Below, piece by piece: positions 34,178 to 50,148 of a stretch of 64,000 bases of DNA. Location: IMG/VR virus record IMGVR_UViG_3300025362_000004, positions 1 through 64,000 of that record; one strand, written 5' to 3'. The notes beneath the pieces were generated by a model. It did not search any database, was not told the origin of the DNA, and saw nothing but the letters and a program-made list of their open reading frames with translations. The DNA comes from a virus. Made by a program: the position numbers and the translations under genes. How positions within the stretch are numbered: position 1 is the first letter of the stretch; the number at the start of each line of letters is the position of its first letter.

Positions 34178-34212
34178 TCGGTGGTAGACAACCAAATTTT
34201 TTTGTCTGTCTA

Positions 34213-34348
34213 TGTAAGCGCTTACATATAGGGTGATGTAAGCGCTTACATATAGGGTGATGTAAGCGCTTACATATAGGGTGATGTAAGCGCTTACATA
34301 TAGGGTGATGTAAGCGCTTACATATAGGGTGATGTAAGCGCTTACATA
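34213..34348. repeat. Six tandem cre-like palindromes, 24-bp period
   Basis: ATGTAAGCGCTTACAT occurs six times with starts every 24 bp (cores at 34214, 34238, 34262, 34286, 34310, 34334), separated by ATAGGGTG. The palindrome matches the LacI/GalR-family CcpA site pattern TGTAANCGNTNNCA. Copies are identical, which indicates recent expansion or selection. Lies directly upstream of the first cassette promoter. Confidence 0.9.
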
Positions 34349-41342: not shown

Positions 41343-41371
41343 ATAGGTAGTTAAGAAAGGACTTGACAAAA

Positions 41372-42130
41372 ATGAGCGAAAAAGAAAAAATCTTAATTTT
41401 AGATACAGAGGTCAACGGGAAATTTGTTTATGATATTGGTTTTATTATCGCTGAGGAAAGCGAAAAGGGTTTTTATCACGCCGTAGAAAAGCATCAATTT
41501 TTAGTAGAACAGATATATTATAATCATAGATTATTTACTACTGATTATTACGCAAAGAAACGGAAAACTTATACAAAACTAATGAAAGGTAGAAATGCAA
41601 TATCTAAAAAGTTTGGTTATATAACACAAATAATCGCACACACCATCAAAAAACATGATATTAAAAAAGTTTATGCTTATAATAGTAATTATGATAAAAC
41701 AAGGTTTGCATTTACAAGTAATGATTTCAAAGTTATAAATCCGTTTGATAAAATAGAATGGCACGATATAATGGCTATCTCTAATCACTTTATACATTTA
41801 AGTGAAAAATATATCAATTTCGCTATTGAGAATGAGTATATCAATTCAAGTGGTTTTATTGAAACAACAGCCGAAACAACTTATCAATTTGTAGATAGCA
41901 ATATTGATTTTAAAGAGGAACACACCTCACTTGCTGACTGTGAAATAGAAATGGAAATATTAAACTATTGCATAGCAAAGGGATACAATAAAGAACAAGT
42001 TTACAAAACAAAAAATATCCCAAGTGATAAATTGCAAGTATTAACAGTAATTCACGAAAGCACCGAACATAAATTTGGTTATGTAAAAAGAAAAAATAGT
42101 TATTTAAAAAATCAAATTACTCTCACATAG
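41372..42130 (+). CDS. DEDDh-type 3'-5' exonuclease (252 aa)
   Basis: KILILDTEVNGKFVYDIGFI has the Exo I D-x-E; VYAYNSNYDKTRFAF is Exo II; EEHTSLADCEIEMEIL gives HxxxxD of Exo III, the DEDDh signature of RNase T/DnaQ-like exonucleases. The spacing is compatible although the N-terminal half is longer than in RNase T. Might degrade host RNA, DNA or cyclic-oligonucleotide signals. Start ATG 41372 after AAAGGA. Confidence 0.75.
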   Translation: MSEKEKILILDTEVNGKFVYDIGFIIAEESEKGFYHAVEKHQFLVEQIYYNHRLFTTDYYAKKRKTYTKLMKGRNAISKKFGYITQIIAHTIKKHDIKKVYAYNSNYDKTRFAFTSNDFKVINPFDKIEWHDIMAISNHFIHLSEKYINFAIENEYINSSGFIETTAETTYQFVDSNIDFKEEHTSLADCEIEMEILNYCIAKGYNKEQVYKTKNIPSDKLQVLTVIHESTEHKFGYVKRKNSYLKNQITLT

Positions 42131-45760: not shown

Positions 45761-45899
45761 TTGACTTTTTATGTAGTCTGTGATATACTTATAGTATAAA
45801 GAGTAAGAGATAAAGTGAGAAAAGGTTCTATCTAACTTGGTAACTACCATAAAGTAATGGAAATATAAACTTGACTTTATATCTAATCTATGATATACT
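45761..45899 (+). promoter_or_regulatory. Tandem AGATTTGA-type promoters
   Basis: TTGACT-17-TATACT at 45761-45789 and TTGACT-17-TATACT at 45871-45899. The first has GGAATTGTAGA upstream; the second GGAAATATAAAC. Both read towards the winged-helix gene and the tRNA/tmRNA-like cluster. Confidence 0.78.
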
Positions 45900-45969: not shown

Positions 45970-46215
45970 ATGGCTAAAGGTAAATTGACTGAAGGAACTG
46001 CGAACGCGTTAGAGGCATTAAAGGGCTTAGGCGGAAAAGCAACTTTCGCAGATGTTAAAGCAACTGGTGCTAAAGTAGGTACTTCTAACTTCACTGCATT
46101 GGTAAATGCTGGGTTAGTAACTGCTGAAAAAGTAACCAAAGTTAAGACTGTTGAGTACGAAGTTAACGAGTACACAGTAGTTGAAGTTGAAGCAACTGAA
46201 GAAGTTGCTGAGTAA
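45970..46215 (+). CDS. Winged-helix-like protein (81 aa)
   Basis: MAKGKLTEGTANALEALKGL, GKATFADVKATGAKVGTSNFTALVNAGLVTAEKV then a Val/Glu-rich wing. Same plan as 37521-37781. ATG after AAAGGAGAA; a GGTAGG/CCTACC hairpin lies just before the ribosome site. Codons here (GCT, GTA, ACT) look optimised, suggesting high expression. Likely a small DNA-binding protein. Confidence 0.65.
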   Translation: MAKGKLTEGTANALEALKGLGGKATFADVKATGAKVGTSNFTALVNAGLVTAEKVTKVKTVEYEVNEYTVVEVEATEEVAE

Positions 46216-46265: not shown

Positions 46266-46342
46266 GCTCCCATAGACAAAACGGTAAAGTCACTAGGCTT
46301 TCAACCTAGAATTTGCGGGTTCAAACCCCGTTGGGAACACCA
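46266..46342 (+). tRNA. tRNA-Glu(UUC)
   Basis: Anticodon stem CTAGG/CCTAG with loop CTTTCAA (anticodon TTC), T arm with TTCAAAC loop, encoded CCA. The acceptor stem GCTCCCA/TGGGAAC has one C-A mismatch. Confidence 0.85.
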
Positions 46343-46485: not shown

Positions 46486-46567
46486 GGGGTTGTAAGGGTT
46501 CGACAGTATTGTAAACCAACAAACGGAGCAATGCTGGACAGGGGTTCAACTCCCCTCAATTCCACCA
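46486..46567 (+). ncRNA. Minimal tmRNA-like RNA: tRNA-like domain only
   Basis: The 5' part (GGGGTTGTAAGGGTTCGACAG) and 3' part (CTGGACAGGGGTTCAACTCC, then CCTCAATTCCACCA) match the ends of bacterial tmRNA. The acceptor GGGGTTG/CAATTCC has G3-U70, the AlaRS identity pair; the TTCGAC D-loop signature and T arm are present. Where tmRNA has ~250-300 nt with the tag reading frame, here a 7-bp AGTATTG/CAATGCT stem closes a loop of only 17 nt. It could be alanylated and bind SmpB but cannot encode a tag. Confidence 0.75.
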
Positions 46568-46584
46568 ATAACTGGAATATAGAT

Positions 46585-46613
46585 TTGACTTTATTAGTAA
46601 TCTATGATATAAT
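46585..46613 (+). promoter_or_regulatory. Promoter of large RNA A
   Basis: GGAATATAGATTTGACT, 17 bp, TATAAT, then TATAATATAAG: the palindrome-free consensus. Confidence 0.82.
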
Positions 46614-46619
46614 TATAAT

Positions 46620-47526
46620 ATAAGAAAAAGAAAAAAATAATTTTAGTCGCCTGAGCACTAACAGGTTCCATAATCTTAGGAATAATTAACCCGTATGAGT
46701 AGGAATAAAATATCAGCGATAGACCATTGGGAAAGATACGGATAGTTCGCGCCGTTCTAAAGACTAAATTATAATTTTCTCTATTGCACTGAGTGTTAGG
46801 TTCCCCCTAAGCCTAGCCCCGAGTGGAGCAGAGAAATACTGCATAGTCAGAGTAACGCCTGTATAAATCTCGCGTTTGAAAAAAGGGAATGGAGAGTAAC
46901 AGCCCTAGAAAAGACTTTCCGCGTTCGGGCTTGTGTTACTAATTTTATGGAGCCTTGCTACCCAGCAAAATCAAAAAAAATAGCGATAGGTTGTGAGCTT
47001 AATGAGGTTGAAAGAATACCAAACCAAACTCTCCTATATGTCGCATAGCTCAATTGGATAGAGCAACTTTAAATAAGAGACAGGGTTTGATTCCCCAAAC
47101 GGCACCGTGGCAGTAGATGGAGCTGACTGGATAAAACTACCGAGTGTGAGGACGCACTATAAACACAGTCACCTGACCAGTTTGAAATCTGGTGTATCAA
47201 AATTTATTGCGTGGTCTTAGGAAAGGCGCCCCAATAGGGGAGAAGTTGGTTCGATTCCATCCGCAACGGGGTAGCTCCCCATGTCCTGCAGGACTATAGT
47301 CTTTTAGTGTTTTATATACTCTTAATAAATCACTGTGTATGGGTTCCACCAGAAAACCTAGGCCTAAGAGTTCGGCCTTCAGAATTGAATCGGAGGAGCG
47401 GCAACCTCGGCGCAGAAAACCGCCCTTAATTTATAAGAATCTGCATTATCGTTTATATAAGACGACTGGGCGTCTATAAAAATTCCCTATACTTTAAAAG
47501 CTATCCTTTATTGGATAGCTTTTTTC
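46620..47526 (+). ncRNA. Large structured RNA A (~900 nt)
   Basis: From promoter to terminator there is no ORF of note. Many stems are visible, e.g. AGTAACAGCCC with GGGCTtgTGTTACT (~46890-46960), GTTAGG/CCTAAG, CCCC/GGGG. It contains tRNA-like pieces: a canonical D arm TAGCTCAATTGGATAGAGCA with TGTCG/CGGCA acceptor at ~47039-47104 but no proper anticodon arm; and an ACCAG-TTTGAAAT-CTGGT arm. Size, phage location beside tRNAs and embedded tRNA-like element are reminiscent of GOLLD-type RNAs; no alignment could be run. Confidence 0.6.
47496..47526 (+). terminator. Terminator of RNA A
   Basis: AAAGCTATCC/GGATAGCTTT then TTTT. Confidence 0.88.
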
Positions 47527-47661
47527 TATAACATTCCCTCCCAATAATGAATATTCATTTTTAATATTCAATAATAAAAATAAACAAAAATATGCCTCTA
47601 AAAGCGAAAATAAAAAATTTTCGTATTTAGCCACGCAAATTATCGATTATCGATAAACCAA

Positions 47662-49260: not shown

Positions 49261-50148
49261 TCACTCTTTATCCTCAATAATCTCCCATAATTTTATATAA
49301 TTCCAAGTAATTTGTAACTCTTTTTCAATATCATTTAATTCAACGTTTTTAAAAGCCTTCGTTGTATCTATTACATCAAGTCTTTTTAGCATGGCAATAG
49401 AATTTAGCTTCGGATTATTAGTATATCTGATACCAATAGGATTGCCATTATACTTACCTGCGGTTTTACGCTCTCCACGAAGGAAACCATAAAAGTTACC
49501 ACTATCAACTTCTAACTCTTGTGCGGCTTTGTAGGCTGTAAGATAAGTTCCTATTATTTGTTTACTATTCATATTATATACTTCCACTCCATTAGTAAAT
49601 TCAAGAGTTTGCATACGCCTACTTAAATGATTTTCTATATTTACTTTACTAAAATCTTTAACGAAAGCGAAAGTAAAACCATTTGCAATAAAATGACCAT
49701 CTTTTCTATGACATATATTTGAAATACTCGTTGGGGCGATATCCAACTTTTTACCCATAGCTGTTACACTATCTTCTTGAGAAATTATTTCAAATGTCCA
49801 AGCGTGTATTTGGTATACAGGCTTAGAATTTTTCTTGCTCAAACCACCCATACTTCGACCACCATTTGCTATATTATAACCTTTTGGTATCTTAGTGTCA
49901 AAATTAGAAATATAAAATATTTCCTTATCATCTAATTCGCTGTTCGGAATGTCGCCTTCGACTTCCTCAATTTTAAACTTATCAAAGCCATATTTTACCA
50001 TTGCAGATAAGATTGCTGAGTTATGCGAAATACTAGCAGATTTATGCCCGTATTTATAATTATTCCAACGATTTCCAATTGCTTGAGTTGTAAGCCCAAT
50101 ATAAATCTTATCATTTACTGAATTTGTTATTTTGTATATAAAACCCAT
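49261..50148 (-). CDS. GIY-YIG homing endonuclease (295 aa)
   Basis: GIY-YIG domain at residues 1-90 (FIYKITNSVNDKIYIGLTTQ; NRWNNYKYGHK; FDKFKIEEVEGD; ELDDKEIFYISNFD). Then two NUMOD1-type DNA-binding repeats (KPVYQIHAWTFEIISQEDSV; VEVYNMNSKQIIGTYLTAYK). Stop is GAG-TGA; reading it as Trp adds nine residues. Free-standing homing nuclease with own promoter, probably mobile within phages. No intron is apparent. Confidence 0.88.
   Translation of the reverse strand: MGFIYKITNSVNDKIYIGLTTQAIGNRWNNYKYGHKSASISHNSAILSAMVKYGFDKFKIEEVEGDIPNSELDDKEIFYISNFDTKIPKGYNIANGGRSMGGLSKKNSKPVYQIHAWTFEIISQEDSVTAMGKKLDIAPTSISNICHRKDGHFIANGFTFAFVKDFSKVNIENHLSRRMQTLEFTNGVEVYNMNSKQIIGTYLTAYKAAQELEVDSGNFYGFLRGERKTAGKYNGNPIGIRYTNNPKLNSIAMLKRLDVIDTTKAFKNVELNDIEKELQITWNYIKLWEIIEDKE

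What the first reader, a model, noticed from the sequence alone, without database searches (positions are those of the whole stretch)
46486..46567. An 82-nt tmRNA reduced to its tRNA-like domain
Both ends match tmRNA consensus (GGGG...TTCGACAG and CTGGAC...TTCCACCA), with G3-U70 for alanylation, but the mRNA-like domain and pseudoknots are replaced by a 17-nt loop. Such an RNA could be charged with Ala and bound by SmpB, entering stalled ribosomes without a tag frame. Inference: a decoy that blocks trans-translation, or a helper that releases ribosomes without tagging. I know of phage-borne complete tmRNAs, but not of this reduced form.
Basis: partly seen in the sequence, partly recalled or inferred. 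Interest (0 to 1): 0.86.

Follow-up and report, generated by a model that had tools for sequence, protein, structure and literature searches.

The report
Phage tmRNA cut to its tRNA-like part
This phage carries an 82-base RNA that looks like the charged, ribosome-entering end of the bacterial ribosome-rescue RNA (tmRNA) without its message, and I found about a hundred structurally matching RNAs in other phages, so a form reported before from one phage appears to be a widespread viral tool for interfering with, or reshaping, ribosome rescue.

Summary
[quoted passage not shown] Rfam tmRNA scores it 65 bits (cut-off 47; E=4e-23), with 302 model positions missing. ARAGORN does not see it. The kind is not new: Mycobacterium phage DS6A has a reported TLD-only tmRNA, and such an RNA inhibits tmRNA in E. 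coli. New here is its extent. A strict pattern scan of IMG/VR gave 110 passing contigs (78 unique sequences) before it was cut short; I estimate about 250. All four helices covary, and G3.U70 holds in 79 of 80 unfiltered sequences. It also occurs unannotated in sequenced Streptomyces phages (LuckySocke, Shaeky and others), in cyanobacterial tRNA arrays, and, in a set of viral contigs, between the prohead-protease and major-capsid genes. Carriers lack SmpB; 50 of 50 other long viral contigs lack a full tmRNA, but this phage has one as well. Most likely it is charged by host AlaRS, binds host SmpB and EF-Tu, and antagonises host trans-translation. Template-free alanine addition is the main rival.

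The parts
46486..46567 (+). TLD-only tmRNA (whole RNA, CCA encoded)
   Evidence: Rfam RF00023 65.1 bits; R1 76.8 bits over 46486-46564 (the model was built with this sequence included)
46486..46492 (+). 5' strand of acceptor stem GGGGUUG; G3 = 46488
   Evidence: pairs with 46557-46563; acceptor covaries in 27 homologues
46499..46504 (+). D-loop core UUCGAC, no D-stem
   Evidence: tmRNA consensus
46504..46512 (+). 5' strand of P2
   Evidence: pairs with 46528-46536; P2 covaries in homologues
46513..46527 (+). capping loop AAACCAACAAACGGA in place of the mRNA-like domain and pseudoknots
   Evidence: same loop, up to single-base differences, in viral L209/L210, cyanobacterial L136/L225-L234 and a Nostoc plasmid; most other homologues have a covarying hairpin here
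46528..46536 (+). 3' strand of P2
46540..46556 (+). T-arm AGGGG-UUCAACU-CCCCU
46557..46563 (+). 3' strand of acceptor CAAUUCC; U70 = 46561
46564..46567 (+). discriminator A73 and encoded CCA
46266..46342 (+). tRNA-Glu(UUC) upstream, probably on the same transcript
   Evidence: ARAGORN and Rfam
45970..46215 (+). 81-aa ORF upstream, unknown function
   Evidence: the ORF listing; no Pfam or PHROG match
45871..45899 (+). phage-type promoter TTGACT-N17-TATACT (TG-extended), likely start of the transcript with the ORF, tRNA-Glu and TLD-only RNA
   Evidence: motif enriched 34 vs 1.55 expected in the window; transcription not tested
46585..46613 (+). next phage-type promoter TTGACT-N17-TATAAT, 18 nt after the RNA's 3' end

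Best explanation
It is a phage-encoded, message-less tmRNA. Steps, with status. (1) It is cut from a longer phage transcript by host RNase P and 3' nucleases (inferred; the 3' CCA is encoded). (2) Host AlaRS charges it through G3.U70 and A73 (identity elements shown; charging inferred). (3) Host SmpB and EF-Tu.GTP bind its elbow, as they bind the artificial TLD fragments used in structural work (inferred). (4) It either holds SmpB away from host tmRNA or enters the A site of ribosomes stalled on truncated mRNA, where it offers no tag frame and no stop codon. The net effect most likely is to antagonise or tune host trans-translation during infection (inferred). Identity as a TLD-only tmRNA: about 0.95. 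Antagonism of trans-translation as main role: about 0.5.
For: Rfam tmRNA 65 bits over the whole RNA. 27 diverse homologues: 96.8% of cells paired (69.2 in shuffles, 40-50 when slid), covariation score 0.682 against 0.144, all four helices with double-sided changes, G3.U70 27/27. Before any filter on it, G3.U70 was present in 79 of 80 unique sequences. In 50 of 50 long viral records the only tmRNA hit above cut-off is the TLD-only one, and none of 50 records including this one encodes SmpB, so the partner would be the host's. The five bacterial genomes checked that hold one also have their own full tmRNA. A DS6A-like TLD-only RNA inhibits tmRNA in E. coli (cited in PMC4131195, PMC11915505). A TLD joined by a UUCG loop binds SmpB, and an alanyl-TLD-SmpB-EF-Tu complex is seen on stalled ribosomes (PDB 2CZJ, 4ABR, described in PMC3929946, PMC3968760).
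Against: No expression, charging or binding was tested. This phage and Streptomyces phage Riptide also carry a full-length tmRNA, which a simple SmpB decoy would be expected to inhibit too. Riptide's copy and most cyanobacterial array copies have lost UUCGAC. In at least five viral contigs it lies in the head operon directly upstream of the major capsid gene, which also fits an RNA-processing role. The original inhibition paper (Mao et al. 2009) was not readable here.
Confidence: 0.55

Rival explanations
1. Template-free alanine donor or tagless rescuer. Ala-TLD.SmpB enters stalled ribosomes and takes the peptide; release then needs another factor (release factor, ArfB, Pth), or alanines are added repeatedly, giving peptides a short alanine tail instead of a tag.
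For: SmpB with a TLD fragment supports polyalanine synthesis in vitro without mRNA (Shimizu & Ueda 2006, cited in PMC3929946). Mitochondrial CDS-less tmRNAs persist with SmpB (PMC11915505). G3.U70 is kept almost without exception, which bare SmpB titration should not need: Hudson et al. say such an RNA inhibits whether or not it is chargeable (PMC4131195).
Against: No co-encoded release factor was recognised among neighbours tested with PHROGs and Pfam (top 25 families shown). In vivo polyalanine addition by a TLD has not been shown.
Confidence: 0.22
2. RNA-processing element: the tRNA-like fold is a cleavage site for RNase P/tRNase that trims phage transcripts, for example giving the capsid mRNA a new 5' end.
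For: In five viral contigs it lies between prohead protease and major capsid genes on the same strand, 50 to about 300 nt before the capsid ORF as called; in others it lies in tRNA arrays.
Against: Processing alone does not explain near-invariant G3.U70 and A73 or tmRNA-type rather than tRNA-type D and P2 regions. In the window it sits in an RNA-gene segment.
Confidence: 0.1
3. A decayed or recombinant remnant of the phage's own tmRNA gene, without function.
For: Its 3' half is nearly identical to that of the full tmRNA of the same phage (compare), and the segment downstream holds tRNA-like pieces.
Against: Acceptor, P2 and T-arm are fully paired, the capping loop matches distant cyanobacterial and viral homologues, and the structure is preserved in dozens of diverged sequences.
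Confidence: 0.08
4. An attachment-site fragment left by integration into a host ssrA gene.
For: Some phages carry 3' ssrA or tRNA fragments beside an integrase; Validus and Madeline show tRNA-like fragments next to integrases.
Against: Both ends and all helices are present; no integrase was recognised beside this RNA or among the listed families of 70 neighbour proteins.
Confidence: 0.03

Closest known systems
TLD-only tmRNA of Mycobacterium phage DS6A (PMC4131195; PMC11915505)
   Same: [quoted passage not shown] a similar molecule is reported to inhibit host tmRNA.
   Different: Its sequence could not be fetched, so loop and P2 could not be compared. Ours is from a different type of phage with encoded CCA and coexists with a full tmRNA.
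Standard tmRNA (Rfam RF00023)
   Same: Acceptor with G3.U70, UUCGAC D-loop, P2 start, GGAC, T-arm, A73-CCA.
   Different: The mRNA-like domain, tag frame and all pseudoknots are absent; 302 of 374 model positions are skipped.
CDS-less mitochondrial tmRNA (Rfam RF02544) and about 65-bp plastid tmRNAs (PMC11915505)
   Same: A tmRNA that has lost the tag reading frame.
   Different: Organellar; the mitochondrial genes are usually permuted. The one here has the standard order.
Artificial TLD fragments (PDB 2CZJ RNA: 5' 25 nt and 3' 34 nt joined by UUCG; described in PMC3929946)
   Same: Nearly the same design: acceptor, D-loop, T-arm and start of P2 closed by a loop.
   Different: Made in the laboratory, not a natural gene.
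Full-length phage tmRNAs, one-piece or permuted (PMC9004378)
   Same: Phage-borne ssrA homologues, often near tRNA genes.
   Different: They encode a tag; ten such genes from other phages score 38 bits or less with the TLD-only model, against 54-90 bits for most TLD-only RNAs.

Membership tests
tmRNA (ssrA), TLD part | 7-bp acceptor with G3.U70 and A73 | tested here: met
tmRNA (ssrA), TLD part | stemless D-loop with UUCGAC, and GGAC before the T-arm | tested here: met
tmRNA (ssrA), TLD part | score above the Rfam RF00023 cut-off | tested here: met
   65.1 vs 47 bits
tmRNA (ssrA), complete | tag reading frame with resume and stop codons | tested here: not met
   only 15 nt between the P2 strands
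tmRNA (ssrA), complete | pseudoknots PK1-PK4 | tested here: not met
   302 model positions deleted
TLD-only (CDS-less) phage tmRNA, as DS6A | contiguous TLD in standard order without CDS, in a phage genome | tested here: met
TLD-only (CDS-less) phage tmRNA, as DS6A | inhibits endogenous tmRNA | not testable with these tools
   needs a tagging assay
TLD-only (CDS-less) phage tmRNA, as DS6A | sequence homology to the DS6A RNA itself | not tested
   the DS6A record is not held under either accession tried
tRNA | D-stem and 7-nt anticodon loop | tested here: not met
   homologues carry a short hairpin of about 4-nt loop at this place
permuted two-piece tmRNA (RF04321 and others) | 3' acceptor strand precedes the 5' strand in the gene | tested here: not met
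   standard order; RF04321 reaches only 23.7 bits, cut-off 47

The most novel reading that the evidence does not exclude
TLD-only tmRNAs are a widespread, selected family of virus-borne RNAs with their own signature (covarying P2 and capping hairpin, G3.U70), carried independently of tRNA arrays in most cases and in one set placed beside the capsid gene. Phages use them to rewire ribosome rescue of the host, by blocking SmpB.tmRNA or by template-free alanine addition; cyanobacterial stress-type tRNA arrays have acquired them too.
Probability: 0.6. Interest if true: 0.85.

Novelty: new member of a known kind. Interest (0 to 1): 0.7.

Why it matters
The 2025 tmRNA database lists nine standard-order CDS-less sequences in all; phage DS6A is the only phage case the sources read here name. 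The pattern and model used here turn that oddity into a family of about a hundred found and perhaps 250 in IMG/VR, missed because ARAGORN does not report them. Because sequenced laboratory phages (Streptomyces phages LuckySocke, Shaeky, GiJojo, BRock and others) carry one, it can now be tested directly whether viruses attack or reprogram trans-translation.

Tried and rejected
Ordinary tRNA: rejected. Permuted tmRNA: rejected. Attachment-site fragment: rejected for this RNA (see rivals). A split tmRNA whose message part lies elsewhere: acceptor and P2 are both complete, so nothing remains to be joined; an RNA acting in trans was not excluded. Exact-sequence scan of viral contigs: no hits. Relatives of this phage through the exonuclease-like protein 41363-42130: none. 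DS6A by two accessions: not held. Mao et al. 2009 and Hafez et al. 2013: not held. Of 63 pattern hits in 84,980 species genomes, by hand inspection only 6 (L136, L155, L160, L164, L178, L194) are TLD-only; most others show no tmRNA 5' half. Rfam scan of the noncoding stretch 46568-47530 found nothing convincing, its fold is not unusual (z=-1.0), and blastn against phages gave only short pieces. Pattern-forced columns (UUCGAC, GGAC, GGGUUC, UCCC) were not counted as evidence of conservation; G3.U70, A73, P2 and the inner hairpin were not forced in the 80-sequence set (at least six acceptor pairs were), but the 68- and 27-sequence sets were later filtered for a full acceptor and G3.U70.

Full report
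WHAT IS THERE. At 46486-46567 (+) lies GGGGUUG UAAGGG UUCGAC AGUAUUGU AAACCAACAAACGGA GCAAUGCU GGAC AGGGGUUCAACUCCCCU CAAUUCC A CCA. Rfam RF00023 aligns it end to end, 65.1 bits, E=4.2e-23, skipping 302 model positions. ARAGORN does not report it. The predicted fold is acceptor, P2, a weak inner pair and T-arm. G3 (46488) pairs with U70 (46561).

THE CARRIER. The window is part of a 123,582-bp virus record, G000. The same record holds a full-length tmRNA at 77588-77979 (94.2 bits) and a large tRNA region from 63.3 to about 80 kb. SmpB is not encoded. The RNA follows an 81-aa ORF and a tRNA-Glu, behind a phage-type promoter at 45871-45899; this promoter motif is enriched 34 to 1.55 in the window. 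Another such promoter starts 18 nt after the RNA (46585).

IT IS A FAMILY. Most are the same thing. Of 80 unique sequences with at least six acceptor pairs and short gaps (viral contigs plus the window's own), 79 have G3.U70; the one exception (L030) appears to be a wrong register. With a full 7-bp acceptor and G3.U70 required, 110 viral loci (78 unique sequences) pass. Two narrower patterns whose whole-collection counts are known (11 and 5, against 5 and 2 in the partial scan) suggest about 250 in all; this is an extrapolation.

STRUCTURE IS UNDER SELECTION. In 68 dereplicated sequences P2 pairs 1-4 are kept in 62-67, against 29-37 in shuffles, with four to six pair types each. In 27 aligned sequences all four helices covary, including the inner hairpin that caps P2: 96.8% of cells paired, covariation score 0.682 against 0.144 shuffled and 0.06-0.14 slid. 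Model R1 built from them gives 76.8 bits here and 54-90 to most others, but 38 or less to tRNAs and to full or permuted tmRNAs. The window sequence was in the training set. The motif A-CC-(4-9)-GG in the loop occurs in 51 of 68, against 14 in shuffles.

WHO ELSE HAS IT. Sequenced Streptomyces phages LuckySocke, GiJojo, pSt2308, BRock, Shaeky and (weaker) Alone3, within tRNA clusters and not annotated as tmRNA. Riptide has a degenerate copy and a full tmRNA. Among 84,980 species genomes, six cases by hand inspection. Two of these lie beside phage structural genes (L194 terminase, L155 head protein), and L160 appears to be the contig IMG/VR lists as viral L104. Five of the six genomes were checked and have their own full tmRNA. 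In relatives of one cyanobacterium, 9 of 97 genomes match, mostly inside long tRNA arrays. Their capping loop is nearly identical to that of the window RNA, while most array copies have lost UUCGAC; a Nostoc plasmid has one too. The Anabaena array of this type is induced by translation inhibitors (PMC10272220); whether that strain's array contains the RNA was not tested.

CONTEXT. 88 of 105 viral loci of at least 4 kb have no tRNA gene in the held flank, so it is not merely a passenger of tRNA arrays. In L011, L020, L031, L043 and L102 it lies between prohead protease and major capsid genes; L036, L042 and L069 show one of the two beside it. No integrase appears among the listed families of 70 neighbour proteins. 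In 50 of 50 long viral records no full tmRNA was found, which is weak evidence, since full tmRNAs are rare in phages (2.3%, PMC9004378) and many records are fragments.

MECHANISM. Shown: alanine identity elements, the TLD fold, constraint, and absence of a message. From the literature: a similar TLD-only RNA inhibits tmRNA (PMC4131195, PMC11915505); TLD fragments bind SmpB and EF-Tu on the ribosome and support polyalanine synthesis in vitro (PMC3968760, PMC3929946). Inferred: in infected cells it is charged, bound by host SmpB, and antagonises trans-translation. The near-invariance of G3.U70 suggests that charging matters, which keeps the template-free alanine donor alive as main rival. The presence of a full tmRNA in the same phage is the main difficulty for a simple decoy.

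NOVELTY. The kind was known from one phage in the sources read; this is a new member, and the breadth, structural signature and genomic settings described here were not found in the papers searched.

Noticed in passing
G000 record 77588-77979 (L001 1501-1892): The phage's full tmRNA, aligned to RF00023, has a frame reading GNLFNTVISWVKGLFSPRVALSV*, a long tag ending in ALSV rather than ALAA, which might escape ClpXP; ARAGORN proposes a different tag, SPEYRIRLLTNTKW. Read by eye.
   Followed up: partly
46585-47530: Noncoding stretch with its own phage-type promoter, tRNA-like pieces (for example near 47040-47108 and 47204-47270) and a terminator-like hairpin with T-run near 47500; no ORF of 60 aa and no Rfam family. 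Possibly a large noncoding RNA of about 900 nt or decayed tRNA genes.
   Followed up: partly
L011, L020, L031, L043, L102: TLD-only RNA placed between prohead protease and major capsid genes, same strand.
   Followed up: partly
L225-L234: TLD-only RNA in cyanobacterial genomes, mostly in long tRNA arrays, near tRNA-Arg(CCG)/Glu/Asp and tRNA-Cys; UUCGAC replaced in most.
   Followed up: partly
L248 672-748 (Streptomyces phage Riptide): Degenerate TLD-only RNA in a phage that also has a full tmRNA (annotated with tag ANSKFAFALAA).
   Followed up: partly
L208 (Tunturiibacter phage Tunturi_4): Permuted tmRNA directly next to a gene annotated as RF-1 domain peptide chain release factor.
   Followed up: no
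window 29439-59701: 34 matches in the whole window to TTGACT-N17-TATAAT with at most one mismatch, 1.55 expected; most have TG before the second hexamer. Likely the phage's promoter set.
   Followed up: no
34212-34348: Perfect tandem array, 24-bp unit ATGTAAGCGCTTACATATAGGGTG, 5.7 copies.
   Followed up: no
49261-50148 (-): GIY-YIG endonuclease gene, possibly a homing endonuclease.
   Followed up: no
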